51,875 nucleotides of DNA from Bacteroidetes bacterium MED-G21. Lineage in GTDB: Bacteria > Bacteroidota > Bacteroidia > Flavobacteriales > UBA7430. This document shows, in pieces, positions 31,471 to 51,875 of this stretch (positions are counted from its first letter, which is position 1; every line of letters starts with the position of its first letter). Position numbers and translations under genes: made by a program. The stretch is from NCBI GenBank assembly GCA_002457305.1, contig NTKG01000003.1:1-51875 (forward strand), written 5' to 3'. Under the pieces are notes generated by a model. It searched no databases and was not told the origin of the DNA. It was given only the letters and a program-made list of their open reading frames with translations.

Positions 31471-34287
31471 ATGACACCACTGGTAGATAAAAAACTTTTT
31501 CTGTTTGACGCATTTGCATTGATATATAGAGCATACTTTGCTTTTGCTAAAAACCCTAGAATTAATTCTAAGGGTCAAGACACTTCTGCTGTGTTGGGCT
31601 TAGTGAACACATTAATGGATGTTCAAATGAAAGAGCAGCCAACTCATTGGGCTATTTGCTTTGACACATCAGAACCCACAGAGCGCCACATTGAATATAA
31701 AGAATATAAGGCTCAACGCGAAGCAATGCCTGAGGGGATTTCTTCTGCGCTTCCATATATTTTTAAATTAATGGAAGCGCTTAATATCCCCGTAATAGCT
31801 AAGCCGGGTTTTGAGGCAGATGATGTTATAGGAACGCTTGCAAAAAAGGCTGAAAAAGAGGGGTTTGTAACATACATGATGACGCCTGATAAAGATTTTG
31901 CCCAGCTTGTCTCTGATAATATTTACATGTACCGCCCTCCTAGAATGGGTAATGGTGCTGAAATTTGGGGGATTCCAGAGGTGCTTAAAAAATTTGAAAT
32001 AAATCGTATAGATCAGGTCATTGATTATTTAGGAATGATGGGAGACGCCTCAGATAATATACCTGGTATTCCGGGTGTTGGGGATAAAACAGCAAAAAAA
32101 CTATTGGCTCTATACGATAATATGGACGGCTTGTATCTTCATACTCACGAGTTAAAAGGAAAACAAAAAGAAAAAGTAGAAGCCAATAAGGATTTGGCTT
32201 TTCTTTCTAAAAAATTAGCAACGATAAACACAAGTGTTCCTGTAGAATTTAACTCCGATGATCTCGTCCGAAAAGAAATGAATAAAGATGCGGTGCTTGA
32301 TCTTTTTGAGGAGTTGGAGTTTCGGCGTTTAGCGGAGCGTTGGTTTGGAAAAGATTTACCTAATCCAACTGGTGGTGGTGAAAGTTCGGCTAAGATTAAA
32401 CCTTCTAAAACAGGGCAAATAGATTTATTTGCGGCTGAAGAAAACGGTGGTCAAAAATCTCTTTTTGAATCCTCATATGAGACTATAGAAACCACTAAAG
32501 TCAATTATGAATTAGTAGACAATATTTCTGACTGTTACAGTTTAGTTGAGAAATTGATGGTTCTTAAGTCTTTTGCTTTCGATACAGAAACCTCTTCATT
32601 AAACGCTTTGGAGGCGGAAATTGTGGGTATGTCTTTTTGTTATAAGGCTAAAGAGGCTTATTATGTTCCTACTCCCACTAACACAAAAGAAAGAGATGAA
32701 ATTCTTGCTGTTTTTAAACCATTATTCGAAAATGAACGTATTGAAAAAGTTGGTCAAAACATTAAATTCGACTATCATATTCTTGCCAATTACGGTATCG
32801 AATTAAAGGGTCGGTTATTCGACACAATGATTGCGCACTATCTTATTCAAGCAGATATGCGTCATAATATGACTGTTCTTGCTGAGACCTATTTAAACTA
32901 TTCTCCAATTAAAATTGAATCCATTATAGGAAAAGGAAAAGCGCAATTAAATATGCGTGATCTTCCTGCTATAAAAATAAAGAAATACGCTTGTGAAGAT
33001 GCTGACATCACTTGGCAATTAAAAACTGTTTTTGAACCCCTTTTAAAAAAAGAAGATTTAATTTCTCTATTCCGAGAAATAGAAATGCCCTTGGTTTCTG
33101 TGTTAGCAAAAATGGAGCGACAAGGAATTAATTTAGATAGAGAAGGTTTGAAAGTATTTTCTAAAGAATTAGAATCGTTTGTAAAAGATGTTCAAGTCGA
33201 AATATTTAATGTCGCAGGAACGGAGTTTAATATTTCATCTCCTAAACAGTTGGGGGAGGTTTTATTCGACTACCTTAAAATAGATGATAAAGCAAAAAAG
33301 ACTAAAACAGGACAATATTCGACATCGGAAGAAGTTCTTTCTAAGCTAAAAAAGAAACACCCTATCGTAGAAAAAGTTTTAACTTTTCGCTCCTTACAAA
33401 AACTCCGTTCTACATATGTAGACGCCCTACCAGGACTTATTAATACTAATACTCAACGAATACACACCTCGTTTAACCAAGCGGTTGCTGCTACAGGAAG
33501 GTTGAGTTCTAATAACCCTAACCTACAAAACATTCCTATTCGCACAGAAAGGGGTCGTGAAGTGCGAAAGGCTTTTATTCCTCGTGATGATAACCACGTT
33601 TTACTTGCTGCTGATTATTCTCAAGTTGAGCTTCGTTTAATTGCTGAAATGAGTAAGGACCCGGTAATGGTTGAGGCTTTTCAGCAGGGTTTAGATATTC
33701 ATGCTGCAACTGCTTCAAAAGTTTTTAATGTTCCTTTAAAAGATGTTACTAGGGAAATGCGATCTAATGCTAAAATAGTAAACTTCGGTATTATTTATGG
33801 CGTTTCTGCTTTTGGCTTAAGCCAACAATCTTCACTGTCGCGAAAAGAAGCTGCTGAAATCATAAAAAACTATTTTGCGACCTACCCTAAATTAAAAGAA
33901 TATATGGATGCGAATATTGCTTTCGCACGAGAACATGGTTATGTAAAAACGATTATGAATAGAAAACGACGTTTAAAAGATATTAATTCTAGAAATGCTG
34001 TCGTTCGTGGCCATGCTGAAAGAAATGCTATAAATACCCCCATACAAGGATCTGCTGCTGATATAATCAAGTTGGCTATGATTAAAATTCAAACAGAAAT
34101 AGATGTTTTAGGTTTGCAATCAAAAATGTTATTACAGGTGCATGATGAATTGGTTTTTGATGTTTTAAAAACAGAACTCCCTGTGCTTAAAAAATTAATA
34201 AAAGAAAAAATGGAGGGTGTTTTAGATTCAATTGTTCCTCTTGTTGTTGATTTAGATGTGGGTAAGTCGTGGTTAGAAGCGCATTAA
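31471..34287 (+). CDS. polA: DNA polymerase I
   Basis: 938 residues from the ATG at 31471 (MTPLVDKKLFLFDAFALIYRAYFAF); the track's TTG start six codons earlier is less likely. All three domains are present and appear active: 5'-3' exonuclease with EADDVIGTLA, MMGDASDNIPGIPGVGDKTA; 3'-5' exonuclease with FDTETSS, GQNIKFDYHIL and YACEDADIT; and polymerase with motif A LLAADYSQVELRLIAEMS, motif B RSNAKIVNFGIIYGVSAFG and motif C LLQVHDELVFDV. It processes Okazaki fragments and fills repair gaps. Its stop overlaps the stop of the convergent MBL-rhodanese gene by 4 bp. The 3' half is more AT-rich than genes further left. Confidence 0.98.
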   Translation: MTPLVDKKLFLFDAFALIYRAYFAFAKNPRINSKGQDTSAVLGLVNTLMDVQMKEQPTHWAICFDTSEPTERHIEYKEYKAQREAMPEGISSALPYIFKLMEALNIPVIAKPGFEADDVIGTLAKKAEKEGFVTYMMTPDKDFAQLVSDNIYMYRPPRMGNGAEIWGIPEVLKKFEINRIDQVIDYLGMMGDASDNIPGIPGVGDKTAKKLLALYDNMDGLYLHTHELKGKQKEKVEANKDLAFLSKKLATINTSVPVEFNSDDLVRKEMNKDAVLDLFEELEFRRLAERWFGKDLPNPTGGGESSAKIKPSKTGQIDLFAAEENGGQKSLFESSYETIETTKVNYELVDNISDCYSLVEKLMVLKSFAFDTETSSLNALEAEIVGMSFCYKAKEAYYVPTPTNTKERDEILAVFKPLFENERIEKVGQNIKFDYHILANYGIELKGRLFDTMIAHYLIQADMRHNMTVLAETYLNYSPIKIESIIGKGKAQLNMRDLPAIKIKKYACEDADITWQLKTVFEPLLKKEDLISLFREIEMPLVSVLAKMERQGINLDREGLKVFSKELESFVKDVQVEIFNVAGTEFNISSPKQLGEVLFDYLKIDDKAKKTKTGQYSTSEEVLSKLKKKHPIVEKVLTFRSLQKLRSTYVDALPGLINTNTQRIHTSFNQAVAATGRLSSNNPNLQNIPIRTERGREVRKAFIPRDDNHVLLAADYSQVELRLIAEMSKDPVMVEAFQQGLDIHAATASKVFNVPLKDVTREMRSNAKIVNFGIIYGVSAFGLSQQSSLSRKEAAEIIKNYFATYPKLKEYMDANIAFAREHGYVKTIMNRKRRLKDINSRNAVVRGHAERNAINTPIQGSAADIIKLAMIKIQTEIDVLGLQSKMLLQVHDELVFDVLKTELPVLKKLIKEKMEGVLDSIVPLVVDLDVGKSWLEAH

Positions 34288-35690
34288 TTTTTTGTGTTTG
34301 AACAAAAAATTTCTGTCTTTGGAATTTTTGTTCTTTTTATTGCTGCATACCCTCCTATTACATCAATTAAGTTTTTATATCCTTTTGATTTTAAAATAGA
34401 AATATAAATTACTGAACGGTATCCCCCTGCACAGTGTATGTGGTATTTTTTTTCTTTATCTATTTCTTTATAGTGATTAAATAAATCGTCTAATGGTTTA
34501 TTGTTTACTGATTCTATATGCCCTAAATTATATTCTGATGATTTTCTTACATCTAGTATGTTAATTCCTTTTTTATTTTTTTCTTCAAGCTCTTCCGCTG
34601 TTTCCTGTGTAATTACGTCTACTTTTCTTCCTGTCTTTTCCCAAGAAAGAAAAGATCCTTTTAAAAATCCTACTGAATTATCGTATCCAACCCTTGCTAA
34701 TCGTGTAACAACCTCTTCTTCTCTTCCTTCTGGGCAAACAATCACAATTTTTTGTTTTATATCTTTTATTAAGGTTCCTACCCAAGGAGCAAAACCTCCA
34801 TCTATTCCTATAAACCAAGATCCGGGAATAAAACCTTTAACAAAATCTTTTTGATGGCGAACATCTAAAATTAAAGCTCCTTTTTTTACTTCGTTGTCAA
34901 ACTCTTTAATAGTTAATGGTTTTGCTCCAGAAATAATTATTTGTTCGATTGTTTTTTTTGCTATTGTTTTATTTAATTCTACGTTTTTAGGAAAATATTG
35001 TGGTGGTGGTAAAATTCCTTGTAATACTTCTTTTATAAATTCTTCTTTTTTTAAATTTTTATTTAATGCATAATTTGTTTGTTTTTGATTTCCTAATAAA
35101 TCAAAAGTTTCTTTACTTATGTTTTTTCCGCAAGCAGACCCCGCACCATGTGCTGGATAAACTATTATATCGTTTTTTAAAGGCAGTATTTTGTTTCTTA
35201 ATGAATCAAAAAGAAGGCCTGCTAAATCTTCTTTTGTTAAGTTTGTTTTAACTGCTAAATCTGGCCTACCAACATCTCCTATAAATAATGTGTCTCCTGA
35301 AAAAAGGGCTCTTTCTTTTCCTTTTTCATCAATTAATAAATAACACGTTGATTCTATTGTATGACCAGGAGTATGTATGGCTTTTATTTTAATTTTTCCT
35401 ACTGATAGTATTTCTCCATCTTCTACCTGTTTAAATTTAAATTCTGTTTTTGCATGAGGTCCAAAAACAATTACTGCTCCTGTTTTTTTTGCCAATTCTA
35501 CATGCCCAGAAACAAAATCTGCATGAAAATGTGTTTCTAAAATATATTTAATTTTAGTATTATTTTCTTTCGCCTTTTCTATATAAGGCTCAACTTCCCT
35601 TAAGGGGTCTATAATTAATGATTCTCCTTCTGATTCAATATAATAAGCAGCTTCAGATAAACAACCTGTATATATTTGCTCTATTTTCAT
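34284..35690 (-). CDS. MBL-fold persulfide dioxygenase-like protein with two rhodanese domains (CstB-like)
   Basis: 468 residues. Residues 1-240 form a metallo-beta-lactamase domain of the ETHE1/persulfide dioxygenase type (ETHFHADFVSGH, HTPGHTIESTCYLL, FSGDTLFIGDVGRPDL, VYPAHGAGSACG). Two rhodanese domains follow: ILDVRHQKDFVKGFIPGSWFIG with IVCPEGREEE, and INILDVRKSSEYNLGHIESVNN with the loop HCAGGYRS that holds the likely catalytic Cys. The architecture matches S. aureus CstB, which oxidises persulfides. A tauE-like gene is directly upstream, as in cst-type operons, but no sulfide:quinone reductase or CstR is in view. The gene is very AT-rich. Activity on persulfide is inference. Confidence 0.9.
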   Translation of the reverse strand: MKIEQIYTGCLSEAAYYIESEGESLIIDPLREVEPYIEKAKENNTKIKYILETHFHADFVSGHVELAKKTGAVIVFGPHAKTEFKFKQVEDGEILSVGKIKIKAIHTPGHTIESTCYLLIDEKGKERALFSGDTLFIGDVGRPDLAVKTNLTKEDLAGLLFDSLRNKILPLKNDIIVYPAHGAGSACGKNISKETFDLLGNQKQTNYALNKNLKKEEFIKEVLQGILPPPQYFPKNVELNKTIAKKTIEQIIISGAKPLTIKEFDNEVKKGALILDVRHQKDFVKGFIPGSWFIGIDGGFAPWVGTLIKDIKQKIVIVCPEGREEEVVTRLARVGYDNSVGFLKGSFLSWEKTGRKVDVITQETAEELEEKNKKGINILDVRKSSEYNLGHIESVNNKPLDDLFNHYKEIDKEKKYHIHCAGGYRSVIYISILKSKGYKNLIDVIGGYAAIKRTKIPKTEIFCSNTKN

Positions 35691-35716
35691 GTTTAACCTA
35701 AATAATAATTTTTGTT

Positions 35717-36502
35717 TTAATAAAGTTCTTTTAAAAATATAAATACAGCTATTGATAAAACAAAATAGCCAAATATTTTTTTAAGTTTTTCGCCTGACAT
35801 AAATCTACTAATATATAAACCTATAAACATCCCAAATAAAGAAAAACAAGAAAAACTTAATAAAAAAGGCCAATCAATATTTAATGATAATTGAAAGTCT
35901 CCTATTATTCCAATTAATGATTTTAAGGAAATAATCATTAAAGAGGTACCTATTGCTTTTTTCATAGATAACCCACCAAATAAAACCAACATAGGAATAA
36001 TTAAAAACCCTCCTCCTGCTCCTACTAATCCAGTAACTAATCCAATTATTAGTCCTTCTATTATAATAATAAAATAATTAATTTCTTTTTTTATTATACT
36101 ATTGTTTCTGTTTGTAATCATTGATACTGCAGCTAACACCATAATAAGTGCTAAAAAAATTAATATTAATTGTTCTGTTTTATAATAAAAGGTATCTGTT
36201 ATTTTAATTTTTTGAGGAAGCGAAGGTAAAATAAAACGTCTTGTAAAATATATAGATAATAAAGAAGGCGATGTAAAAATTAGCCCAATCTTAAAATCTA
36301 TATTCCCTTTTTTAATATTTTTTATTGCACCAAAAAAAGCCGTTAAACCAACAATAAATAATGAATAAGTTGTAGCTAAAATTGGTTCAATAGTAAAAAT
36401 ATAAACTAAAACAGGAATGGTTAAAATAGAGCCACCACTACCTATTAAACTTAATATTATTCCAATAATAATAGCGCTTATATATCCTATTGCATCTATC
36501 AT
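35717..36502 (-). CDS. TauE/SafE-family sulfite/sulfur anion exporter
   Basis: 261 residues, mostly hydrophobic, with about eight membrane helices and the two family repeats GSGGSILTIPVLVYIF near the start and VGAGGGFLIIPMLVLFGG in the middle. TauE/SafE proteins move small sulfur or organic anions across the inner membrane; beside a CstB-like gene, export of sulfite or thiosulfate is a sensible inference. It precedes the MBL-rhodanese gene by 26 bp. A strong terminator lies only a few bases before its ATG, with no ribosome-binding site, so how it is expressed is unclear. Base composition is extremely AT-rich. Confidence 0.92.
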   Translation of the reverse strand: MIDAIGYISAIIIGIILSLIGSGGSILTIPVLVYIFTIEPILATTYSLFIVGLTAFFGAIKNIKKGNIDFKIGLIFTSPSLLSIYFTRRFILPSLPQKIKITDTFYYKTEQLILIFLALIMVLAAVSMITNRNNSIIKKEINYFIIIIEGLIIGLVTGLVGAGGGFLIIPMLVLFGGLSMKKAIGTSLMIISLKSLIGIIGDFQLSLNIDWPFLLSFSCFSLFGMFIGLYISRFMSGEKLKKIFGYFVLSIAVFIFLKELY

Positions 36503-36509
36503 TTTATCA

Positions 36510-36543
36510 TAAAAAAAAGACCCTTTTTTGGGTCTTTTTTTAT
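36510..36543 (-). terminator. Terminator after the TlpA-like gene, abutting the tauE start
   Basis: AAAAAAAGACCC, T-rich loop, GGGTCTTTTTTT; symmetrical, so it works on either strand. Its minus-strand T run ends about 8 bp before the tauE ATG at 36502. Confidence 0.85.
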
Positions 36544-36545
36544 TT

Positions 36546-37895
36546 TTACAAATTGTTTTTTAAAAATAACATAAGCTCTTGTTTTCCTTTTGGCTTATTT
36601 ACTATTTTCATTTCCTTATCTAAAACAAAAAATGCAGGTGTTTTATTTATTTTATAATCTTTACAAACGGGAGATTGATAATTTTTAAATTGACTAACAT
36701 TAATCCAATTAAAATTACTGTTTTGTATTGTTGTCTTCCATTTATTTTCATTTACATCTAAAGCAACTCCTATTACTTCTAAACCTTTTGGTTTATATTC
36801 ATTATAAACAGGAACAAATCCAGGTAAATCTCTCATACAGTGTCCACAATGAGAGGCCCAAAACATAATAATTGTGTATTTATTATTAGCACATGTGTTT
36901 TTTAAATTTATTTCTGTTCCAAAATTACTTTTTATAGTAAAATCTGGTGGTATATTTCCAACTTGTAAATTTTTTATTAATTGAGCTTTTTGTCTTAATA
37001 AATCATTTATTTCTATATCTCCACAAGCTTCCCCATAAAAATATTCTTCCATTATATAAGTAGCAATATCTTCTAATCCTGAACCATAAAAGCCATCTAA
37101 TAAATTATATAAAGAAAACTCGAACACTTTTTCATTAACTTTTGCTTTATTCATAATTTCATCTACAGCATTGTAATATCCTACCTCTGTATGTCCACTA
37201 TGTTTAATTATATAATCGGTAAATCTTGTTGCAAATACTTCAGATCTAATAAATGTTTCATTATTAAAATCTAAATCGTCAAAATATTTTTTCTTATCGT
37301 CTTTATTTTTTGCTTTACTAGCAACCTTTGCTTTAGAAAAATAAGAATTTGGGTATTTATTAATTACGTTTTGTGTGTGGTTAAATTTTTCTTTTTCTAT
37401 TTTTTCAATTTCATTTTTAATCTCATTTACTTTAACTTGATTACCTTGAGATTTAAATTGTCCTATTTGCTTTTTTAAACCTTTAACAATTTTATTTAAT
37501 TCTAGTTCTTTATTTTTAAATTCCCAATATGCTTTATTTTCTAATGAATTGATAACGGTTACATCCCTTTCTAAATAAACTTGTCCAAACTCTAATTCTA
37601 CTAATGATTCTTTTGGATTTAAAATAACCTCAATTATATTTTTATCATTTGTTAGTGCTAATTTATAATAACCTAATTCATATTGTTTATTATTAAATAT
37701 AAATGATCCATCTATATTAATTTTAACACTGTCAATTTTATATTTATAATTTCCTTCTGTTCTATAAAGAAATAATTCTTTTCCTTGTTGTCTTTTATTT
37801 AAAAAATTACCTTTTATTGTTTGTGCATTTACAGCCGGATCATTTCCACAGCTTAACACAAATAAACTCATAATTATCAATATTATTTTTTTCAT
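36546..37895 (-). CDS. TlpA-like thioredoxin-domain lipoprotein with DUF4369-like N terminus
   Basis: 449 residues from the ATG at 37895 (MKKIILIIMSLFVLSCGND), chosen because it gives a proper lipoprotein signal with lipobox FVLSC; the 22 extra residues of the longer ORF look like leader. Residues 30-130 resemble DUF4369 (TIKGNFLN, YKIDSVKINIDGSFIF). A Lys/Glu-rich helical middle follows, then a thioredoxin domain (PPDFTIKSNFGTEINLKNT, MFWASHCGHCMRDLPGF with CGHC, NKTPAFFVLDKEMKI with cis-Pro). Likely a membrane-tethered periplasmic thiol reductase or disulfide isomerase. Very AT-rich. Confidence 0.9.
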   Translation of the reverse strand: MKKIILIIMSLFVLSCGNDPAVNAQTIKGNFLNKRQQGKELFLYRTEGNYKYKIDSVKINIDGSFIFNNKQYELGYYKLALTNDKNIIEVILNPKESLVELEFGQVYLERDVTVINSLENKAYWEFKNKELELNKIVKGLKKQIGQFKSQGNQVKVNEIKNEIEKIEKEKFNHTQNVINKYPNSYFSKAKVASKAKNKDDKKKYFDDLDFNNETFIRSEVFATRFTDYIIKHSGHTEVGYYNAVDEIMNKAKVNEKVFEFSLYNLLDGFYGSGLEDIATYIMEEYFYGEACGDIEINDLLRQKAQLIKNLQVGNIPPDFTIKSNFGTEINLKNTCANNKYTIIMFWASHCGHCMRDLPGFVPVYNEYKPKGLEVIGVALDVNENKWKTTIQNSNFNWINVSQFKNYQSPVCKDYKINKTPAFFVLDKEMKIVNKPKGKQELMLFLKNNL

Positions 37896-38518
37896 TTCTC
37901 TTTTTATTTTCGTTGAAAATTTAGAAGCACTAAAATAGTTAAAATTATTAATGCTTAGCAAAGCTATAATATTATAAATAATTTTTTAATTTATAATTTA
38001 ATAACATTTAACAACTATATATATATAATAACATTCTTTTTATTTAAAAAATATAATAAAATATATAATAATAATAGGCTGTTTATTACTTGTATAATAT
38101 TAAGAGGTTTTATTAGGAAATGTGTTTTATTAAAATTAATAAACATAATTTGGAGGTTTATAAACAGGTATAAGTCAAAATAATCAATAGTATAGGGTAA
38201 AAATTAACAGCTGTTGATAAATTAAAAAAGAAGTTTTAATACAATAAAATATTGTGATTTTTAATGTTAAAAAGCAATTTGAAAACACTAATTACATAGT
38301 GATAAAAAATAAATAAATCACCTTGCCTTTTTGGTATAAATTATTCCTTATAAAAATTATAAATAAAAACAATACATAGTTTTAATAAAGGTTTAACAAA
38401 GAAAAAGAAGAATCAATAAAAGATTGTTAATAAACACCTATTGAATATTAAGGTTTTATAAAAAAATGAACAAAGTTTTTTATAATTGTTGATAAGGAGA
38501 AAAAAGAGGAATAATCAT
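37896..38518. other. About 620 bp of extremely AT-rich non-coding DNA with DnaA-box-like sites
   Basis: No ORF is credible. It contains long A/T runs and alternating TATATA tracts (about 38016-38075), TGTTGATAA at 38212-38220 and again at 38487-38495 (reverse complement TTATCAACA, one base off the DnaA box TTATCCACA), a looser TGTTAATAA at 38425-38433, and an inverted repeat TTTATTA-AAAT-TAATAAA at 38126-38143. It separates divergent minus- and plus-strand genes. Whether it is an origin-like, terminus-like or merely a long promoter region cannot be decided here. Confidence 0.6.
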
Positions 38519-38526
38519 TACATTTG
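38519..38526 (+). promoter_or_regulatory. Putative -7 box of rpiB
   Basis: TACATTTG fits TAnnTTTG, 19 bp before the ATG; an AAGGGG stretch lies between them. No -33 element at the usual spacing. Confidence 0.5.
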
Positions 38527-38545
38527 ACACTTAAAAGAAGGGGTT

Positions 38546-38977
38546 ATGAAAATAGCAATAGCATCCGACCACGCAGGTGTTGGGTATAAAATACAGTTGG
38601 TTAACTATCTGAAAACAAAAAAGGTTGAAGTAAAAGATTTTGGACCTATGAATGAAGAAAGTGTAGACTACCCGGATTATGCTCATCCCGTAGCTAATGC
38701 AGTAGAAAAAAAAAATACTGATTTAGGTATTTTATTATGTGGTAGCGGAAACGGAATTAATATGAGCGCAAACAAACATCAAGCCGTTCGTTCAGCATTA
38801 TGTTGGAAAAAGGAAATTGCCGAACTCGCTCGTTTACATAATAATGCAAATGTTTTAGCTATGCCCGCTCGTTTTATTTCATATGAAGAAGCACAAGAAA
38901 TAGTAGATATTTTTTTAGAAACAAAATTTGAAGGAGGAAGACACGAAAGAAGGGTAAATAAAATAGCGTGCCCCTAA
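38546..38977 (+). CDS. rpiB: Ribose-5-phosphate isomerase B
   Basis: 143 residues, normal for RpiB. KIAIASDHAGVGYK at the N terminus is the phosphate/substrate loop, VDYPDYAHPVANAV follows, LLCGSGNGINMSANK contains the catalytic Cys, and ALCWKKEIAELARLHNNANVLAMPARFIS is the family core with the His/Asn pair; GGRHERRVNKI ends the fold. It interconverts ribose-5-phosphate and ribulose-5-phosphate in the pentose phosphate pathway. It stands alone on the plus strand and converges on the AddB-like gene 6 bp away. Composition returns to the window average here, in contrast to the DNA just upstream. Confidence 0.97.
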   Translation: MKIAIASDHAGVGYKIQLVNYLKTKKVEVKDFGPMNEESVDYPDYAHPVANAVEKKNTDLGILLCGSGNGINMSANKHQAVRSALCWKKEIAELARLHNNANVLAMPARFISYEEAQEIVDIFLETKFEGGRHERRVNKIACP

Positions 38978-38983
38978 AAATCG

Positions 38984-41812
38984 TTACGATCTAAATGCTT
39001 CTGGGTCACAAAAGCGACAAGGTTCTTTTCTATTTTTATGTTCAAAATTAATGTTCGGGTTAAAAATTTCTTTTAACAGATTCTTAAATTCTTTTTCAAA
39101 ATCACTCAATAAATCAGAGTTCAAAAGCTTATTAACCTTCCCATCTTCTTTGAATCCTGCAGGTAAAAAGCCTTTTTTCAAAGATCTGAAACTCACAATA
39201 CCTGTTTCCAATAATTCCTGTTCCGGATACATTTGTTGATACATATAAGCATAGAGGTATAGCTGGAACCCTTTATGGAATTTTTTCTCTCGGATTAATT
39301 TTTCCATATCATCGGTTTGTAATTCATTAAGCTCTACTTTACCTGTTTTATAATCTATAATACGGAGTTGACCGTTGAGTTTATCTATTCGGTCGGCATT
39401 TCCATTTAGCTTGACATTGAAGTCGATTTCCTCGATACAAATTTCGGTTTTGAGATCTTTTTCCAAGCCTTTAATATAAATTTCATTTCCTTTTGAAATT
39501 AATTTTATCTCTTTTTTGATAAAAGAGTGTAAAAATTGTTCGGCTACAGTGTAAATCAGCTTGTTTTTACCCTTGTTGAATATTCCGCTTTTAAACTCTT
39601 CCAAGAAGAGTTCTTTCAGTTTAGCAGGAATTTTAGGCAGCATAGATTTTAGATCTTCTGTGTTGATTTCCCGATTTAAATAGGGGCGGTAAAAATCTTC
39701 TAAAGCACGATGAACAACTGTTCCTAAAGTGTTGGCCTCAATCGTTTCTTTCATTACGGCTGGCTCTTTAATATTTAGTATTTTTTCATAATAAAATTGC
39801 AATGGGCAGTTTTTGTAGGTGTTTAATGAAGAAGGAGAAAACCCTTTATCTGTAGCGATTTCTTTTAATCGTTCTTTAATAACCTCATCTTTTATAATAG
39901 ACAACTCTTTAGGTTCTACTTTTTTTAGTGGATGTGATAAAATCTCTTCGTTAAATTTTATTTCTTCAGGATATTTAAACTGAAGTTCGTTTTCGAGTTG
40001 GGTGATAAACCGACTTTTTTCTCCCGAATTCAATGCGTCAGTTTCGGTATTGTAAACCAAAGTCAGCGATTTGCATCGCTGTGCCAACCTGTAGAAATGA
40101 TAAGCAAAAACAGCGTCTTTATCCATATAAGTAGGTAAACCAGTCTCTTTTCGAATATCGAATGGGATAAAAGAGTGATCACTTTTTCCTGTTGGCAGAA
40201 AACCTTCGTTTGCAGAGAGTAAAATAACGTGTTCAAAATCTAGGTTACGCGTTTCCAGCATTCCCATCAATTGCAAACCGGTAAGCGGCTCTCCGAAAAA
40301 AGAAAGGTTTTCAATTTTTGCACTTTGTTGAAAAAGGTGGTGAAGTGTTTTTAACTCTTGAATAAATCCATATTTATCTTGTAAATTTTTAATTTGGTTA
40401 AAGAGCTTTGCAAAGGCAAAAAGCGACTCCAGATCCAATGAATTTTTTCGTCCTTGTGCAATGATCTCATCTTTGATTAAAGCGGTTAATTTCAATGCAT
40501 TGTCAATAATCTCAAAAGGATTTGAGCTTTGATAATTCAGCAGCGCCTTAATCCAGGGTAAAATATCTGATTCACAAGAATTTAAAATATCTTCTTGTGA
40601 CGGAAACGAGTGGTTTTGTTTTTGTAGACTACTCTTTAGTTTTTCCAGGGATTTAGTGCTTCCTGAATTTTGGAACGCCGGGTGTTGCCATATTTTAAAC
40701 AGATCCTGGTAGTAGAATTTTGTTTTACCGCCACTCAATTTTTCTCTATTGATATGTAATTGAAAGAAGGCATCAAAAAAGGCGTACAGATGTACGTTTC
40801 GCAAGGAATTCCCCATGGTGATGTTTAGTTTGTCAATGGAATTTGGTAAGAATTCCAATACAGGTAAGAGCATTTTTTCGTCTGCCAGCACCAGGGCAAC
40901 ATCTTTTAATTCTTGGTTTTTTGATATAGATTTGTCAAGTAAAGAGCCGGCTAATTGTGCCTGGGCAACACCTTTAGGAACCCCGTAAACAGTTATGTTT
41001 TTTGGTTTTTTCAATTCTGAGCAAACCCAGTTAAATTCACGATTCTCGAATTCCGGCCACTGTTGATATTGTCGTAAATACTTCCCCGCTTCCTGTTTTT
41101 TATCTTTAAGGTAATATTCATCAGCATCCCAAAACACTTCCGCAACATCTTCCGCAATAAGCGTTCGCATAATATGGGCTTCACAAGGATTCATGGCATT
41201 AAACCCGAGATAATAAACAGAAGATTTAAGTGGGTTCTTTTTAGTGATCCATTTTGAAACATGATCCGAAGCTTTTCTATAGGCCATTCCTTGAAATGCG
41301 ATATTTTGTTCTTTTAAGCGTGCTTTAAAATCAGTAAAAAGCAAACCCATTAATTCCCAAAAACGAAGATATTTTTTAACCATTTCACTAGGCTCTCCAC
41401 CTAAAGGAGTCCATGCTTCAATCTTTTTTGCTTGATGGATGTAGTTGAATAATTTTTGAGGTTGCTCGAAATAAGAGTCGATATCGTTGAAGTCGGTAAG
41501 TAGCATAGGCGCCCATTTCAAAAACACTTCAAACGAGTCTTGCTCATCTTTAGGAAATACATTTTGGTAAGAAATATACATTTCAAAAAGCAACTGTGTT
41601 TTATCTATAATGGTAAAACCAGAAAGTTCTTCCAACCACTCTTCAATAGAATAAATTTTAGGCATCCAAAGTGGAACATCGCTTAAGTCAGAAAGAGCTT
41701 GCTTAAAAAATGTCCCAGCTCGTTTACTCGGCAATACAATACTTAGCTCTTCTAGTTGATGCTGTTTTGTACCGTAAATTTTTTTGGCTATTTTATTGAT
41801 AAATTTATCCAT
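38984..41812 (-). CDS. AddB-like helicase/PD-(D/E)XK nuclease
   Basis: 942 residues from the ATG at 41812 (MDKFINKIAKKIYG), one base after the stop of the partner gene. The N-terminal part has an inactivated helicase-like fold (LSIVLPSKRAGTFFKQAL), and the middle contains ILLSANEGFLPTGK. The C terminus is a RecB-type nuclease: SPSSLNTYKNCPLQFYYEKIL, NTLGTVVHRALEDFY, and the catalytic LRIIDYKTGKVEL. A CxxC (PCRFCDP) near the end plus the earlier Cys would form part of an iron-sulfur staple, though I see three rather than four Cys. It acts with the AddA-like protein in double-strand break resection. Confidence 0.88.
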   Translation of the reverse strand: MDKFINKIAKKIYGTKQHQLEELSIVLPSKRAGTFFKQALSDLSDVPLWMPKIYSIEEWLEELSGFTIIDKTQLLFEMYISYQNVFPKDEQDSFEVFLKWAPMLLTDFNDIDSYFEQPQKLFNYIHQAKKIEAWTPLGGEPSEMVKKYLRFWELMGLLFTDFKARLKEQNIAFQGMAYRKASDHVSKWITKKNPLKSSVYYLGFNAMNPCEAHIMRTLIAEDVAEVFWDADEYYLKDKKQEAGKYLRQYQQWPEFENREFNWVCSELKKPKNITVYGVPKGVAQAQLAGSLLDKSISKNQELKDVALVLADEKMLLPVLEFLPNSIDKLNITMGNSLRNVHLYAFFDAFFQLHINREKLSGGKTKFYYQDLFKIWQHPAFQNSGSTKSLEKLKSSLQKQNHSFPSQEDILNSCESDILPWIKALLNYQSSNPFEIIDNALKLTALIKDEIIAQGRKNSLDLESLFAFAKLFNQIKNLQDKYGFIQELKTLHHLFQQSAKIENLSFFGEPLTGLQLMGMLETRNLDFEHVILLSANEGFLPTGKSDHSFIPFDIRKETGLPTYMDKDAVFAYHFYRLAQRCKSLTLVYNTETDALNSGEKSRFITQLENELQFKYPEEIKFNEEILSHPLKKVEPKELSIIKDEVIKERLKEIATDKGFSPSSLNTYKNCPLQFYYEKILNIKEPAVMKETIEANTLGTVVHRALEDFYRPYLNREINTEDLKSMLPKIPAKLKELFLEEFKSGIFNKGKNKLIYTVAEQFLHSFIKKEIKLISKGNEIYIKGLEKDLKTEICIEEIDFNVKLNGNADRIDKLNGQLRIIDYKTGKVELNELQTDDMEKLIREKKFHKGFQLYLYAYMYQQMYPEQELLETGIVSFRSLKKGFLPAGFKEDGKVNKLLNSDLLSDFEKEFKNLLKEIFNPNINFEHKNRKEPCRFCDPEAFRS

Positions 41813-41813
41813 A

Positions 41814-44800
41814 CTACACACGCTTCAATTTTATAGATTCATCGTTGATATAAACCAAAAGACACTCTTTTACCTTATAACCCATGTTTTCAATTTCAGT
41901 TTTGTATTCCAAAATTTGTTTTTTATGCGTATTGTTTTCCAGGCCAGTTTTATAGTCAATGATGGTCACTTCATTTTCTTTAAAGATTAATCGGTCTGGC
42001 CTAAGAATATTCCCGTTACTTAAAAGAATTTCTTCTTCATTTTTCACCTTCAAACCCTCAGCGAAATAAGGTTTCATTTTAACATTTTTAAGCACTATAT
42101 TTAAGAGGGATCTCATTTCTCCCTCTTCACAGTTGGTAATTAAGCCCAGGCGGAGTGCTTTTTTTAACGCATCATCAAGATCATTTACTGTTTTGATATA
42201 GGATAGAATTTCGTGTACCCTCCGCCCTTTATCAGCCCCTTTTTCCGGATGATTGACTTCCCACATTTTTGGTGCCTGTCGATTAATCTGAAGAATTTTC
42301 GATAAGTCTTTTACAGGTTGCGATGTCGGAATTTTTTTATTTTCTTTTTGTTTATTGTTAGCCGCTTTTACTGTTTTACCGAAGTTGTATTGAGTTTTTC
42401 CATCTTCCCAAAGACCTTTTGATTGTATGAAAGCATCAAAAAAGGTGTTTAAATTTTTACCTCTTTCTTTAGCAGAGGTAAAGATGTATAGCCGTGTTTT
42501 AGGTCGGGTAAGAGCCACGTAAAGCATGTTTAGATTGTCTAGTAGAACTTTTGCTTTATGCTCTTCATAAATAGCTTGTAACTGTTTCGTGCCAGATTTC
42601 AATTTATCATTTAACGGAATTAAGGAGCTTGGTAAACCTTCTAATTCCGGTTCATTTATTTCTACCCAGGATTTTGCATCCCGCTCACTGGTTGCATTCC
42701 AGTTTGCAAAAGGAAAGAGCACCACTGGAAACTCTAAGCCTTTGGATTTATGGATTGTCATTACCTGTACGGCGTTAATACCTTCCGGAATAATTACAGA
42801 CAACTTGTGTGCGTGCTCTTCCCAATAATTTAAAAAACCAAACAAGTCTTGTGAATATTTGTTGCTATATACCCAGACCTCGTCGAGAAAAAACTGCACA
42901 TAAACACGGGCCCTTTTTTCCAATTGAAAGGCTTTGGTAATTTTATGACACAACTCGATGAGTGAAGAGGAGCGCCATTTTAACAGGTCGAAATCGATGA
43001 CAAGCTCTTTTAGAAAAGCATAAAATTTATTTGCAGAACCCTTACACAACGGTTCTATTTTTTCATTCATCATTTCAGGCGACCAGGGGTAAAACGCTTT
43101 TTCATGTAAAAATTCGATGACCTTAAACCGATATCGAGGATGATTAGGCTCGTTTAAAAATCGAAGGAAGTTTAATATAAAACGGATTTCTGTTGATTGT
43201 TCTAATAATAACGATTCAGAAGAAATTACTGGAATATTTTTATCGGAAAGCGTTTTTACAACTAAAGCCCCCTTGGCTTTGGTTCGTGTTAAAATACAGA
43301 TGTCCCCATAGTTAAAACCATCTTTATTTAGTTCTTTGACCGTTTTTAAACAACGACCCAGTTGTAGTTCATCGTGTCCCGCACCATTTTCCAGATATTC
43401 TAAAGAAACATAACCACCATTACCTTTTACCACTTGTGCTTTGAGGTTTATAAAAAGCTCTTTGTATTTTTTATGCTCTATTTGATGAGCGATGGAAGAG
43501 AATAATTCATTGTTGAAATTGACCACCTCTGCCCTGGAGCGATAATTGTTTTTGAGAGACAAGTGCTCCATTTTATAAGCTCCTTGCGTGTTTGGATTTA
43601 CTGCTACCTGTTGTAGGTTTATAAATTGGTCTACCTCTCCGCCTCTCCATCGGTAAATGGCTTGTTTTGAATCCCCAACAATCATTACCGAACCGGGTTT
43701 TTGGCCATCTGCAATGGCGTTTTCGATTAAGGGCACTAAGTTATTCCACTGTAATTCGGAGGTGTCTTGAAACTCGTCGATAAAGTAATTAGCGTATCGT
43801 TCACCCAACCTTTCGTAGATGAAATTACCCTCCTCATTTTGTAGTACTTCAGCAATTTTTTTATTGAACTCCCCTATAGGGATGATGTTGTTTTGCTCTT
43901 TGATTTGCTCCATTTCTTTGGAAATCTCGTGTAAGACGGCCACAGAATATAAGTTATGAGCGATTAATTTGAAGTGTACGTATTTTGGGTATTCTTCTAA
44001 AATGTCAATCGCCTTTTTAACTAAAGGATAAAACTTTTCTTGAACCGCATCAATTTGACCAGACACCTCTTTTGGCGCCTTTCCGGAACGCCAACTTTCT
44101 TTTTCTATATTCTTAAGGTTTGAATCACTGGGTTTGTATTTTCCCCAATTTTTAGAACTTAGAAATTCAAAGTATTTTGGCAGACCAGAACGAGCCCCCC
44201 CCGCAAACCAATCGGCCTTTAAGCCGCTGTTTTTACAATCAGAAAGAAACCTTTGACCTATAGTTGAAAGTTCATAATCGATTTTATTCGTGAAGCTTTC
44301 AACTTCTTTTCTTAGTTTAAAGAAGCCGTCTAAACTTAAATCTTTCAAATTTTCGCAATGTACCTGACCGCTTTCTTTTAAAAGTTCCTCGGCGATGGCG
44401 TAAAAGTCTTTTTCTATTAACCAGCTTTTATCATCGGCGGTTTTATTTTGTATAAAACTGACAAATAGTTTTGTCAACTTTTTATTTTCTCCAGCTTTAT
44501 TAATTAATAAATCTACCGCTTGTTTAAGCAATAGCTTATGTTCCATTTCCACTTCAAAATTATTTGGCAAGCCCAAGTCTTGTGCAAATGTTTTAAGTAC
44601 CCTGTGGGTAAATTTATCAATGGTTCCAATGGCAAACCTGGAATAATTATGAAGGATATTCTCAAAGATTAATTGAGCCCTAGATTGAAGCTCTTTTTTT
44701 GCAAGCCCAGTCTCTTCTGCTATTAGCATCATCATATCCAGCTCGGTTTGTTCAGCTTTGTTCGGATCTGAAAAAGCCTTTAAACTCTTTATGATGCGCT

Positions 44801-44966
44801 CCTTCATTTCTGTTGCCGCCTTATTAGTAAACGTAATGGCAAGGATTGCCATAAATTTTTGTGGCGACCCTGCTTTTATACAAACCTTAAGGTATTCCTT
44901 CACCAGAGTGAAAGTTTTACCCGATCCGGCTGATGCACTATATATTTTAAAGGGCGCGCTTTTCAT
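41814..44966 (-). CDS. AddA-like UvrD/REP helicase-exonuclease
   Basis: 1050 residues. Helicase motif I is YSASAGSGKTFTLVKEYL at residues 9-26, motif Ia AITFTNKAATEMKERI, motif II FIDEFQDTSELQW, motif III VGDSKQAIYRWRGGE, motif V VQVMTIHKSKGLEFPVVLFPF and motif VI LYVALTRPKTRLYIFT. A RecB-family nuclease domain closes the protein (RVHEILSYI, VTIIDYKTGLEN). It is a UvrD-type ATP-dependent translocase with nuclease, the AddA half of a RecBCD-equivalent complex; the AddB-like gene follows by one base, so synthesis is coupled. It is the first gene of this pair. Confidence 0.93.
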   Translation of the reverse strand: MKSAPFKIYSASAGSGKTFTLVKEYLKVCIKAGSPQKFMAILAITFTNKAATEMKERIIKSLKAFSDPNKAEQTELDMMMLIAEETGLAKKELQSRAQLIFENILHNYSRFAIGTIDKFTHRVLKTFAQDLGLPNNFEVEMEHKLLLKQAVDLLINKAGENKKLTKLFVSFIQNKTADDKSWLIEKDFYAIAEELLKESGQVHCENLKDLSLDGFFKLRKEVESFTNKIDYELSTIGQRFLSDCKNSGLKADWFAGGARSGLPKYFEFLSSKNWGKYKPSDSNLKNIEKESWRSGKAPKEVSGQIDAVQEKFYPLVKKAIDILEEYPKYVHFKLIAHNLYSVAVLHEISKEMEQIKEQNNIIPIGEFNKKIAEVLQNEEGNFIYERLGERYANYFIDEFQDTSELQWNNLVPLIENAIADGQKPGSVMIVGDSKQAIYRWRGGEVDQFINLQQVAVNPNTQGAYKMEHLSLKNNYRSRAEVVNFNNELFSSIAHQIEHKKYKELFINLKAQVVKGNGGYVSLEYLENGAGHDELQLGRCLKTVKELNKDGFNYGDICILTRTKAKGALVVKTLSDKNIPVISSESLLLEQSTEIRFILNFLRFLNEPNHPRYRFKVIEFLHEKAFYPWSPEMMNEKIEPLCKGSANKFYAFLKELVIDFDLLKWRSSSLIELCHKITKAFQLEKRARVYVQFFLDEVWVYSNKYSQDLFGFLNYWEEHAHKLSVIIPEGINAVQVMTIHKSKGLEFPVVLFPFANWNATSERDAKSWVEINEPELEGLPSSLIPLNDKLKSGTKQLQAIYEEHKAKVLLDNLNMLYVALTRPKTRLYIFTSAKERGKNLNTFFDAFIQSKGLWEDGKTQYNFGKTVKAANNKQKENKKIPTSQPVKDLSKILQINRQAPKMWEVNHPEKGADKGRRVHEILSYIKTVNDLDDALKKALRLGLITNCEEGEMRSLLNIVLKNVKMKPYFAEGLKVKNEEEILLSNGNILRPDRLIFKENEVTIIDYKTGLENNTHKKQILEYKTEIENMGYKVKECLLVYINDESIKLKRV

Positions 44967-45522
44967 ACGTACAAGTTTAAGGATTCTTGATTAAATAAAT
45001 TCAGTCTTTAATAGCTTAAAGTGAATAAAGATAAAAACACACAAACGTCTTGATCTGATAATTTAGCCATCTACCTGTTTTGTTTCGATCAGAGTGGATA
45101 TAATAAATAACACAAACAAGCTTAAGGTGTTTTTGGCCCGCTTTTTGAGATATTAATCTTGAAAACTAAAACCGTTACAAGTGTCAGACATTATTACCAA
45201 AACATTAGAAGAGGTAAGGAAAAAAGGAAAATTAAAACGAATAGACGTCGTCATTCGATATTTGAAAATGAAATATAAATTAACCCTGACAAAATCTGTT
45301 TTGGAAAAAAGAATAGGAAACTTATAACAACCCTCATTCGAACAGGTTTAATTTTTTTGTACGCCCAACCACAGCCCAACCTAATCTTAGTTAAGCAAAG
45401 AAGCCAATTAAAAATGATTTTAAAACGAAAGGTCTTCGAAAAAATGGCGCAAACAAGAACAAGCTGTTAATTACTTTTAGGTGAAGAAACACAACCAATG
45501 CTCCGATTAGGAGGCGTCAAGG
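44967..45522. other. Gene-poor spacer of about 550 bp
   Basis: Between the AddA-like gene and tRNA-Cys. Only short overlapping reading frames are present on the plus strand (see 45181). No strong hairpin or repeat was recognised apart from the tRNA terminator at its right end. It may contain decayed coding sequence. Confidence 0.5.
45181..45327 (+). CDS. Possible 48-residue basic protein (GTG start), doubtful
   Basis: Reads MSDIITKTLEEVRKKGKL...VLEKRIGNL from a GTG, too short for the ORF track. It is Lys/Arg-rich and predicted helical, with regular spacing of Leu/Ile. No family is recognised, no convincing promoter was found, and an overlapping frame also stays open for about 40 codons, so chance or a gene remnant is possible. 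Confidence 0.25.
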   Translation: MSDIITKTLEEVRKKGKLKRIDVVIRYLKMKYKLTLTKSVLEKRIGNL

Positions 45523-45559
45523 AAAAAAGTAAGCAAACCGTTAATTATAATGTTTTGCT
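45523..45559 (-). terminator. Probable terminator of tRNA-Cys
   Basis: Minus strand AGCAAA / TTTGCT stem of 6 bp, extended by a mismatch, then TACTTTTTT. Confidence 0.55.
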
Positions 45560-45567
45560 ATTAGTTG

Positions 45568-45639
45568 AGGTCGGAACCGGATTCGAACCGGTGTAGACGG
45601 TTTTGCAGACCGCTGCCTAAGCCTCTCAGCCATCCGACC
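45568..45639 (-). tRNA. tRNA-Cys (GCA)
   Basis: Acceptor GGTCGGA/TCCGACC, anticodon stem GCGGT/ACCGT with loop CTGCAAA (anticodon GCA; plus-strand 45604-45606), T arm ACCGG-TTCGAAT-CCGGT, discriminator U73 as expected for tRNA-Cys. No encoded CCA. Confidence 0.97.
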
Positions 45640-45653
45640 TTATGTAAGGACAG

Positions 45654-45684
45654 CAAATGTAACAAATTCAACAGCTTTCACAAA
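45654..45684 (-). promoter_or_regulatory. Canonical promoter of tRNA-Cys
   Basis: Minus-strand TTTG, 19 bp, TACATTTG, ending 14 bp before the mature tRNA. Confidence 0.85.
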
Positions 45685-45707
45685 TAATATAAAGAGATTT
45701 TGGGCGG

Positions 45708-46064: not shown

Positions 46065-46067
46065 GAC

Positions 46068-47609
46068 CTAATTGTTTATAGAGCTTAAAGCAGAGTCAAT
46101 TCTTTTTAGAACTTCCTCTTTACCTAAAAGCGCCGCAATTTCATTCATTGAGGCGCCAGCCCCCAAACCAGTAACAGACAAACGAAAACCAGGCATTACA
46201 ACCCCAAAGCCAAGGTTTTTTGATTCAAGAAAAGACTTAAAACACAGCCCAATGCTTTCTGGGTCGAAAGACGGAAGTTTCTCTAATAAAAGACTTAATT
46301 CATTTATAATTTCTGGCGTTTGCTCTTTCCATTTTTTATTAACCGTTTTCTCATCGTAAGACTTTGGCGCCTCAAAGAAGTAGCGCCCATCATTTAGGAT
46401 GTCTTTAACGAATGTTGCCCGCTCCTTCATTAGGTTACAAACCTGAACAACATAATTGTTTTCTACGTTAAACCCTTCTTTTTTTAGATGGGGGGTTAGC
46501 TGTTTAGCCAGGTCACCACCCGTTTGGTTTCTTAGGTATTGTTGGTTAAACCATTTTGTTTTATCGAAATCAAATTTAGCACCAGCCTTGCCAACACGAT
46601 CCAAAGAGAATGCACCTATTAATTCTTTCATTGTGAATAGCTCTTGGGTTGTGCCAGGGTTCCAACCTAAAAAGGCTAGCATATTATTAAAGGCCTCAGG
46701 ATAGTACCCGCGTTCACGGTATCCAGAAGACTCTTCTCCTGTTTCGGGGTTGGTCCAATTTGTTGGAAAGACAGGAAAGCCGAGTCGATCTCCATCCCTT
46801 TTTGAAAGCTTTCCGTTTCCATCTGGCTTTAAAATAAGGGGAAGGTGCGCAAATTTTGGCATAACACTTTCCCACCCCAAAAACCGATATAATAAAACAT
46901 GTAAGGGAGCTGAAGGCAACCACTCTTCACCGCGGATGACGTGAGAGATACCCATTAGATAGTCGTCAACAACATTTGCTAAGTGATATGTTGGCATTCC
47001 GTCTGACTTAAACAACACTTTGTCATCAAGGTTGTTTGTGTTGACGCTCACCCACCCTCGAATAATGTCTTCAAATTTAACATCCTCGTTGCGAGGCATT
47101 TTAATTCTAATTACGTATTTATCGCCCCGATCAAGCCGTGTTTTAACATCTTTTGCGGGCAGCGTAAGAGAATTTTTCATACCACTACGCGTAACCGCAT
47201 TGTATTGAGGAGAGGCCATCCCCGCGGATTTCATGCGCTCTCGCATTTCTGTTAATTCCTCTGGCGTGTCAAACGCATAATAAGCGTGTTCGGATTCAAT
47301 TAACAGGTCTGCATATTGTCGGTAAATCGCTTTTCGTTCAGATTGTTTGTAGGGTCCCTTTGATCCACCGGCAGAGACTCCTTCGTCAATATGAATACCA
47401 CACCATTTTAGCGCATCAACAATATAATTCTCAGCACCAGCAACAAAACGAGACTGGTCGGTATCTTCTATGCGAAGTAAAAAATCACCTCCATTTTTTT
47501 TAGCAAACAAGTAGTTGTAAAGAGCCGTTCTTACCCCACCTATATGTAAAGGGCCGGTCGGGCTTGGAGCAAATCGCACTCTAACGCGTCGGTTTTCCAT
47601 TTGTGTCAT
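46068..47609 (-). CDS. gltX: Glutamyl-tRNA synthetase
   Basis: 513 residues, a normal class I enzyme. RVRFAPSPTGPLHIGGVRTALYNYLFA is the HIGH region, LLRIEDTDQSR the Glu-binding block, YHLANVVDDYLMGISHVIRGEEWLPS the next core segment and KLSKRDGD the KMSKS loop. It charges tRNA-Glu, and tRNA-Gln as well if the organism uses the amidotransferase route. Start could be the ATG at 47609 or the one at 47600 (MENRRVRVRF), which is closer to the conserved region. It heads the gltX-folB pair and is divergent from the DUF4175 gene; a near-match TAATTTTA box lies upstream. Confidence 0.97.
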   Translation of the reverse strand: MTQMENRRVRVRFAPSPTGPLHIGGVRTALYNYLFAKKNGGDFLLRIEDTDQSRFVAGAENYIVDALKWCGIHIDEGVSAGGSKGPYKQSERKAIYRQYADLLIESEHAYYAFDTPEELTEMRERMKSAGMASPQYNAVTRSGMKNSLTLPAKDVKTRLDRGDKYVIRIKMPRNEDVKFEDIIRGWVSVNTNNLDDKVLFKSDGMPTYHLANVVDDYLMGISHVIRGEEWLPSAPLHVLLYRFLGWESVMPKFAHLPLILKPDGNGKLSKRDGDRLGFPVFPTNWTNPETGEESSGYRERGYYPEAFNNMLAFLGWNPGTTQELFTMKELIGAFSLDRVGKAGAKFDFDKTKWFNQQYLRNQTGGDLAKQLTPHLKKEGFNVENNYVVQVCNLMKERATFVKDILNDGRYFFEAPKSYDEKTVNKKWKEQTPEIINELSLLLEKLPSFDPESIGLCFKSFLESKNLGFGVVMPGFRLSVTGLGAGASMNEIAALLGKEEVLKRIDSALSSINN

Positions 47610-47814
47610 AAATTAAGAGGCTAAAATTACGAATTATTAAATTGAGGGTTAAAAATATAAAGTTGAAAATAAAACACGAGCAACAAAAAATAATCAAAGC
47701 CTTGCGTTGGGTTATGTCTTCCTGCCACCACCACCACCCAATACCGTCTTTTGTTGTAGGGTTTAGTGGGTATAATCTACTCAGGAAATAAGTAAATAAA
47801 TAAAGAGAATAGTG

Positions 47815-47822: not shown

Positions 47823-47826
47823 TTTT

Positions 47827-51126: not shown

Positions 51127-51129
51127 TAA

Positions 51130-51552: not shown

Positions 51553-51592
51553 GTTGCTGTCGGTCAGCATTAAATAGTTATAAAATCTAAAC

Positions 51593-51614: not shown

Positions 51615-51875
51615 ATGTTTCTAAAAGAGTACGATGTAATAGTTGTAGGCGCAGGCCATGCGGGCTGTGAAGGCGCAGCAGCTGCGGCTAATCTTGGAGC
51701 TAAAACGCTTTTGGTTACCATGAACATGGATACCATTGCTCAGATGTCGTGCAACCCTGCAATGGGCGGAGTTGCTAAAGGCCAAATTATTAGAGAAATC
51801 GACGCCTTAGGCGGCTACTCTGCCATGGTAACAGACGAAACCATGATTCAGTTTAAAATGCTTAATCAGTCTAAA
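51615..51875 (+). CDS. mnmG: tRNA uridine-5-carboxymethylaminomethyl synthesis enzyme MnmG, 5' part
   Basis: 87 codons to the right edge, missed by the ORF track. [37 protein letters not shown] is the FAD-binding Rossmann motif, followed by [24 protein letters not shown], a family signature. With MnmE it modifies U34 of several tRNAs. The ATG follows a parS-like palindrome by 6 bp. The gene is truncated only by the window end. Confidence 0.97.

What the first reader, a model, noticed from the sequence alone, without database searches (positions are those of the whole stretch)
37896..38518. Long AT-rich non-coding block with repeated TTATCAACA sites
About 620 bp without genes, with two exact TTATCAACA sites, one looser copy and TATATA tracts. 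DnaA-like boxes plus an unwinding-prone sequence resemble an origin, which conflicts with the terminus reading of the skew. One of the two must be wrong, or the block serves another role such as nucleoid organisation.
Basis: partly seen in the sequence, partly recalled or inferred. Interest (0 to 1): 0.5.

Follow-up and report, generated by a model that had tools for sequence, protein, structure and literature searches.

The report
Likely chromosome replication origin beside rpiB
The 650-bp, very AT-rich gap upstream of rpiB is most likely the chromosome's replication start site (oriC) of an uncultured marine Flavobacteriales bacterium: its initiator-type binding sites are conserved in relatives, and it lies 13 kb from a centromere-like parS site in the origin neighbourhood published for related bacteria.

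Summary
37896-38545 is a 650-bp, 18% GC gap between a divergent thioredoxin-like gene and rpiB. It is the least stable DNA in the window. It holds four TTATNAACA sites (0.23 expected). In a same-genus relative read nearly whole (1.74 Mb) it is the only 500-bp stretch with four; the next best have two. The gap is kept in a same-genus genome and in relatives from three other genus groups. Site positions are conserved while the central N drifts, as in a protein-binding site. Similar AT-rich gaps with TTATNAACA precede rpiB in many Flavobacteriales, where this is the most enriched 9-mer of its form (40 vs 3.4).

Location supports an origin, not a terminus: a parS-type palindrome at 51594 beside mnmG (genome-unique), the gltX-mnmG neighbourhood that published Flavobacteriaceae genomes name as the origin, and rRNA/r-protein orientation plus gene-corrected GC skew in relatives. 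dnaA lies elsewhere, as reported for Bacteroidetes. Best reading: oriC, with TTATNAACA as the lineage's DnaA box. Weak points: skew switches only over about 100 kb, no experiment exists, and oriC could lie elsewhere within about 15 kb. A new member of a known kind, with a non-canonical box.

The parts
37896..38545 (.). Whole intergenic region, candidate oriC (650 bp, 18% GC)
   Evidence: conserved at 636-675 bp in G001, G005, G006, G008, G009, G010 and 382 bp in G007
37965..38114 (.). Candidate DNA unwinding element: lowest nearest-neighbour duplex stability of the window
   Evidence: the homologous stretch is one of only 2 loci that unstable in the 1.74 Mb of G001
38158..38166 (+). Box 1 TTATAAACA (candidate DnaA box)
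   Evidence: 7 of 8 specified positions invariant in 7 genomes, central N free
38212..38220 (-). Box 2 TTATCAACA (candidate DnaA box), next to TTAACA to its left
   Evidence: Exact TTATNAACA in 4 of 7 genomes, one mismatch in G010, lost in genus group g2
38425..38433 (-). Box 3 TTATTAACA (candidate DnaA box)
   Evidence: 8 of 8 specified positions invariant in 7 genomes; central base T, C or G
38487..38495 (-). Box 4 TTATCAACA (candidate DnaA box)
   Evidence: 7 of 8 specified positions invariant in 7 genomes
38519..38526 (+). Probable rpiB promoter -7 element TACATTTG (Bacteroidota type TAnnTTTG)
   Evidence: Sequence, conserved in alignment A1; promoter consensus from general knowledge
38546..38977 (+). 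rpiB, ribose-5-phosphate isomerase B (right flank)
   Evidence: Pfam PF02502, E 1.2e-58
36546..37895 (-). TlpA-like protein, DUF4369 + AhpC/TSA (left flank)
   Evidence: Pfam; divergent tlpA/rpiB arrangement kept in the family
46068..47609 (-). gltX, the gene at the GC-skew switch in Flavobacterium enshiense
   Evidence: PMC9867689
51594..51607 (.). parS-type palindrome GTTCCACGTGGAAC just 5' of mnmG
   Evidence: Only copy in the assembly; relatives with the motif have 1-4 copies, beside mnmG wherever both could be mapped to one contig, apart from two sites on another contig in G028
51633..51875 (+). mnmG (5' part, runs off the window), the gene named as oriC neighbour in Mariniflexile and Algorimicrobium
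   Evidence: PF01134; PMC11278836, PMC12843772

Best explanation
The block is the chromosomal replication origin (oriC), or its core, of this Flavobacteriales genome. DnaA, encoded elsewhere on the chromosome, binds four TTATNAACA boxes in the rpiB-side part of the gap. The adjoining A/T-only stretch (about 37965-38114) melts, DnaB is loaded and two forks leave in both directions. ParB on the parS site at mnmG, 13 kb away, then moves the new origins apart. Shown here: anatomy, conservation, box enrichment, and proximity to parS and to published origin genes. Inferred: binding by DnaA, melting, and actual initiation.
For: (1) Four TTATNAACA in 650 bp against 0.23 expected; in the 1.74-Mb relative G001 no other 500 bp has more than two. 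(2) In 7 genomes of three genus groups, 23 of 32 specified box positions are invariant (background 30.5%, P 9e-7) while the central N varies, as in the E. coli box TTATNCACA. (3) Unbiased scan: TTATNAACA is the most enriched of all 4N4 9-mers in pooled rpiB-upstream gaps (40 vs 3.4). Many families have a 450-600 bp, 8-20% GC gap there; a Bacteroidales MAG (L146) has 8 boxes in 524 bp (0.1 expected). (4) Lowest duplex stability of the window; one of two such loci in G001. (5) The parS palindrome is unique in the assembly, at 51594 beside mnmG; relatives carrying the motif have 1-4 copies, nearly all at mnmG. (6) Published: oriC at mnmG or at the gltX skew switch in Flavobacteriaceae, and oriC usually far from dnaA in Bacteroidetes. 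(7) In G001, 23S rRNA and L2 are on the minus strand of GC-negative contigs, so forks come from the right end of C1, where corrected skew falls from about -20 to 0 or slightly positive around rpiB. In G007 and G008 it is negative left and positive right of rpiB; in G002 it is positive to the right. dnaA shows no such switch in G002 or G009. (8) In all five complete relatives tRNA/rRNA/L2 orientation fits mnmG better than dnaA, and rpiB better than dnaA in four with a tie in G023.
Against: No experiment. The skew switch is not sharp: in G001 about 100 kb around rpiB is near zero, and corrected GC skew over about +-10-20 kb at 24 rpiB loci shows no consistent sign (right > left in 12 of 24), while AT skew runs opposite to the chromosome-scale pattern. 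Orientation optima lie roughly 100-250 kb from rpiB (rpiB in the best 12-36% of positions in four of the genomes). The box differs from canonical TTATCCACA, and DnaA binding to it is not shown. Genus group g2 keeps only one or two exact boxes. Some relatives with rpiB near mnmG have no AT-rich gap at rpiB (G025, G036, G017, G030, G018, G013), so the exact origin must sit elsewhere there. The genome is a 73% complete MAG without a dnaA contig.
Confidence: 0.78

Rival explanations
1. The origin is in this neighbourhood but not in this gap: it lies nearer gltX/DUF4175/mnmG, and the rpiB gap is an accessory DnaA-binding or regulatory site.
For: Published Flavobacteriaceae calls name gltX or mnmG; parS sits at mnmG; some relatives lack the rpiB gap although rpiB and mnmG are linked.
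Against: In the window the gltX/DUF4175 gap is 202 bp at 32% GC with no box, and no TTATNAACA occurs anywhere from 38496 to 51875. parS is normally near but not in oriC.
Confidence: 0.13
2. The block is a long regulatory region for the divergent rpiB and tlpA-like genes, bound at TTATNAACA by a transcription factor.
For: It is a divergent promoter region with a conserved TAnnTTTG element before rpiB. A TTATCAACA pair also stands upstream of an HU gene (G000:C19 8469 and 8489), so the motif occurs at promoters too.
Against: Far longer and more unstable than promoters need; four boxes occur together only here in G001; similar gaps with boxes persist before rpiB in families where the left neighbour has another orientation; location is origin-proximal by parS and published synteny.
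Confidence: 0.06
3. A terminus or nucleoid-organising region, or decayed AT-rich DNA without function.
For: Raw skew inside the window has no clear minimum here; 34-39 kb is an AT-rich island with GC down to 0.23.
Against: rRNA/L2 orientation and corrected skew in G001 put this side at the origin end; parS sites are origin markers (PMC7022226); conservation of length and box positions excludes decay. No conserved RNA fold and no Rfam hit at the gap.
Confidence: 0.03

Closest known systems
Flavobacteriaceae origins predicted at mnmG (Mariniflexile litorale PMC11278836, Algorimicrobium PMC12843772) and at gltX (Flavobacterium enshiense PMC9867689)
   Same: Same neighbourhood genes (gltX, mnmG); in Mariniflexile, as here, dnaA is not at the skew minimum.
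   Different: Here the box-bearing gap is 8 kb from gltX and 13 kb from mnmG, next to rpiB; the box is TTATNAACA.
Prevotella intermedia OMA14 predicted oriC (PMC4755523)
   Same: DnaA-box cluster at a skew switch, far from dnaA; the authors note this is common in Bacteroidetes.
   Different: Found with the E. coli box allowing one mismatch; other order; neighbours not compared here.
Elizabethkingia meningoseptica predicted oriC (PMC8994065)
   Same: 649-bp block with three boxes and AT-rich unwinding elements, far from dnaA.
   Different: Boxes scored against TTATCCACA with at most one mismatch.
E. coli-type oriC (general knowledge)
   Same: DnaA-box array beside an AT-rich unwinding element; box has a free fifth position.
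   Different: Sixth base is A, not C; no linkage to the parts known from E. coli was tested.

Membership tests
Bacterial chromosomal origin (oriC) | Cluster of DnaA-box-like 9-mers beyond chance, unique in the genome | tested here: met
   4 vs 0.23 expected; only 4-site 500-bp cluster in G001
Bacterial chromosomal origin (oriC) | Adjacent AT-rich unwinding element | tested here: met
   Lowest duplex stability in the window, one of two such loci in G001
Bacterial chromosomal origin (oriC) | Boxes conserved in relatives | tested here: met
   wider gap conservation
Bacterial chromosomal origin (oriC) | At the GC-skew minimum / fork divergence point | tested here: inconclusive
   Chromosome-scale orientation and skew place it within about 100 kb; local skew shows no clear switch
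Bacterial chromosomal origin (oriC) | parS sites nearby | tested here: met
   GTTCCACGTGGAAC at 51594, genome-unique, 13 kb away
Bacterial chromosomal origin (oriC) | Canonical DnaA box TTATNCACA | tested here: not met
   None in the gap; variant TTATNAACA instead. Box sequence is known to vary by species (PMC10225481), so the canonical letters do not define an oriC; this limits the box assignment rather than the origin call
Bacterial chromosomal origin (oriC) | DnaA binding, melting and initiation in vivo | not testable with these tools
   Needs experiment or coverage data
dnaA-linked oriC | Adjacent to dnaA/dnaN | tested here: not met
   No dnaA in window or assembly; in relatives dnaA lies on other contigs or far from rpiB, nearest in G023 at 120 kb
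Replication terminus (ter/dif zone) | Forks converge; skew maximum | tested here: not met
   rRNA and L2 orientation in G001 indicate the origin side
Structured non-coding RNA | Conserved covarying fold or Rfam hit | tested here: not met
   Consensus fold -4.7 kcal/mol over 706 columns; no Rfam hit at the gap

The most novel reading that the evidence does not exclude
An ancient oriC fixed next to rpiB, with a lineage-wide DnaA box TTATNAACA instead of TTATNCACA, is shared by most Flavobacteriales families and possibly parts of Bacteroidales, with a ParB centromere at mnmG and with dnaA unlinked.
Probability: 0.45. Interest if true: 0.55.

Novelty: new member of a known kind. Interest (0 to 1): 0.45.

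Why it matters
Origins of Bacteroidota cannot be found by looking for dnaA, so they are often mislabelled (genomes are rotated to dnaA). A recognisable signature (AT-rich gap 5' of rpiB, TTATNAACA boxes, parS palindrome at mnmG) would let origins be placed in uncultured marine Flavobacteriales, which is needed for growth-rate estimates from read coverage, and makes a lineage-specific DnaA box directly testable.

Tried and rejected
Searching for dnaA in the own genome: none in the 73% complete MAG, uninformative because relatives carry it elsewhere. The second TTATCAACA group (G000:C19 8355-8489) was checked as a rival origin: it is the promoter of an HU gene, recurring in G002 and G009, with no long AT-rich gap and no skew switch. 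The raw window skew was not usable because GC skew follows gene strand (r 0.82 in G001), so a strand-corrected skew was used. Local skew over 24 rpiB loci gave no GC signal. The canonical parS motif TGTTTCACGTGAAACA gave only scattered imperfect hits; the GTTCCACGTGGAAC form gave the mnmG sites. RNA reading rejected. No paper of the held library joins rpiB with oriC and Bacteroidetes, or 'ribose 5-phosphate isomerase B' with oriC and DnaA, and none gives TTATCAACA as a Bacteroidota DnaA box (one search finds one Cyanothece paper only).

Full report
OBSERVATION. The block exists: 37896-38545 (650 bp, 18% GC) separates a TlpA-like gene (DUF4369 + AhpC/TSA, minus strand) from rpiB (plus strand). 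It holds two exact TTATCAACA (38212 and 38487, both minus) and two relatives, TTATTAACA 38425 (-) and TTATAAACA 38158 (+). TTATCAACA with one mismatch is not enriched in the window (26 vs 24.9 expected), so single sites mean nothing. The cluster does: four TTATNAACA in the gap against 0.23 expected from shuffles of the gap itself. The gap has the lowest GC and lowest duplex stability of the window.

GENOME CONTEXT. The window is contig 23 of a 1.40-Mb, 66-contig, 73% complete MAG without a dnaA hit. Named relatives are marine Flavobacteriales MAGs such as UBA6772 and UBA7430; the same-genus genome G001 is the record 'Cryomorphaceae bacterium CM1_5m.P23'.

CONSERVATION. The divergent tlpA/rpiB pair with a 636-675 bp AT-rich gap recurs in G001, G005, G006, G008, G009 and G010, and with a 382-bp gap of 7% GC in G007. 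Across seven aligned gaps 30.5% of positions are invariant, but 23 of 32 specified box positions are (P 9e-7), and box 3 is TTATNAACA in all seven with T, C or G at N. A free fifth base is a feature of the DnaA box TTATNCACA (general knowledge). Beyond the family, many Flavobacteriales loci have a 450-600 bp, 8-20% GC gap before rpiB, in one group with sites at about -280 and -94. An unbiased count of every 4N4 9-mer in a reduced set of 17 such gaps puts TTATNAACA first: 40 observed, 3.4 expected. A Bacteroidales MAG (L146) has eight in 524 bp.

UNIQUENESS. G001 was read nearly whole. The rpiB gap is the only 500-bp stretch with four TTATNAACA; the next best have two. It is one of two loci of lowest 150-bp stability.

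ORIGIN OR TERMINUS. GC skew in G001 follows gene strand closely (r 0.82 for neighbouring 5-kb bins), so it was corrected for strand. Contigs C2 and C4 are uniformly negative, C3 and C5 positive, and C1 negative until about 500 kb, then near zero to its end at 617 kb; the rpiB gap is at 565.5-566.1 kb. The 23S rRNA matches and L2 lie on the minus strand of negative contigs. Since rRNA and r-protein genes run with the fork (general knowledge), forks in C1 come from its right end, so the origin is on this side. In G007 corrected skew is negative left of rpiB and positive right of it, in G008 likewise, and in G002 positive to the right; at dnaA in G002 and G009 there is no sign switch. In five complete relatives the orientation of tRNA, rRNA and L2 genes fits mnmG better than dnaA in every case, and rpiB better than dnaA in four (tie in G023, where rpiB lies 420 kb from mnmG and has no AT-rich gap). 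The tRNA list was cut by the tool, optima are broad and not centred on rpiB, and skew close around 24 rpiB loci gives no consistent GC sign, so position is good only to about 100 kb by these means.

INDEPENDENT MARKERS. The palindrome GTTCCACGTGGAAC, the core of the ParB site parS in Pseudomonas and Myxococcus (PMC7022226, PMC4368675), occurs once in this assembly, at 51594-51607, just before mnmG. Seventeen of the 40 genomes searched (own genome included) hold it, with one to four copies each; wherever mnmG was mapped it stands beside mnmG, except two of the four copies in G028; the reversed control pattern is almost absent. ParB itself is encoded (G000:C19). Published work places oriC next to mnmG in Mariniflexile and Algorimicrobium and the skew switch at gltX in Flavobacterium enshiense, and states that oriC is commonly far from dnaA in Bacteroidetes (PMC11278836, PMC12843772, PMC9867689, PMC4755523). 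In the window gltX starts 8 kb and mnmG 13 kb to the right of the gap.

MECHANISM. Shown: anatomy, conservation, enrichment, neighbourhood. Inferred: DnaA binds the TTATNAACA boxes, the A/T-rich stretch at about 37965-38114 opens, helicase loads, and forks leave in both directions; ParB at mnmG segregates the copies.

MEMBERSHIP. Box cluster, unwinding element, conservation and parS proximity are met. The skew-minimum criterion is inconclusive. The canonical box is not met: the box is a variant, so 'DnaA box' is an inference from pattern and place. Linkage to dnaA is not met, as usual in this phylum.

RIVALS. The main one is an origin a few kb away, near gltX or mnmG, with the gap as accessory site: several relatives with linked rpiB and mnmG lack the gap. 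In this window, however, no other intergenic region between 38.5 and 51.9 kb carries a box. A pure promoter region, a terminus or a structured RNA are each poorly supported.

VERDICT. A probable oriC, confidence 0.78. Ordinary in kind, useful in detail: non-canonical boxes, linkage to rpiB across many Flavobacteriales, and a parS site at mnmG.

Noticed in passing
L078 (G000:C19) 8355-8489: A pair of TTATCAACA 20 bp apart stands upstream of an HU-type gene, with TTATGAACA at the HU start; the same trio recurs in G002:C38 (151605-151737) and G009:C59. Possibly DnaA control of HU or a titration site.
   Followed up: partly
window 51594-51607: Single parS-type palindrome beside mnmG; in relatives 1-4 copies, mostly at mnmG, while parB was found on other contigs or far away where it was mapped.
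   Followed up: yes
window 34284-38545: AT-rich island (GC down to 0.23 against about 0.38) with metallo-beta-lactamase/rhodanese and TauE genes; both are present in G001 but were not found between polA/EamA and tlpA in G005, G006 and G008.
   Followed up: partly
L146, about 160-490 bp upstream of rpiB: A Bacteroidales MAG has eight TTATNAACA within about 330 bp before rpiB, the densest cluster seen.
   Followed up: no
window 216-2045: Secreted-type protein with cysteine repeats (CTDSxAxNF..A...DDGSC) and an internal near-exact duplication of about 35 residues (ITGDDLMAIANYxYEWEEGQYCFNYGDPMMC).
   Followed up: no
G001 (L081-L100, L208-L224, L228-L280): The same-genus assembly lacks a stretch of about 100 kb around dnaA that G002 has, and many genes are broken by frameshifts, probably sequencing error.
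   Followed up: partly
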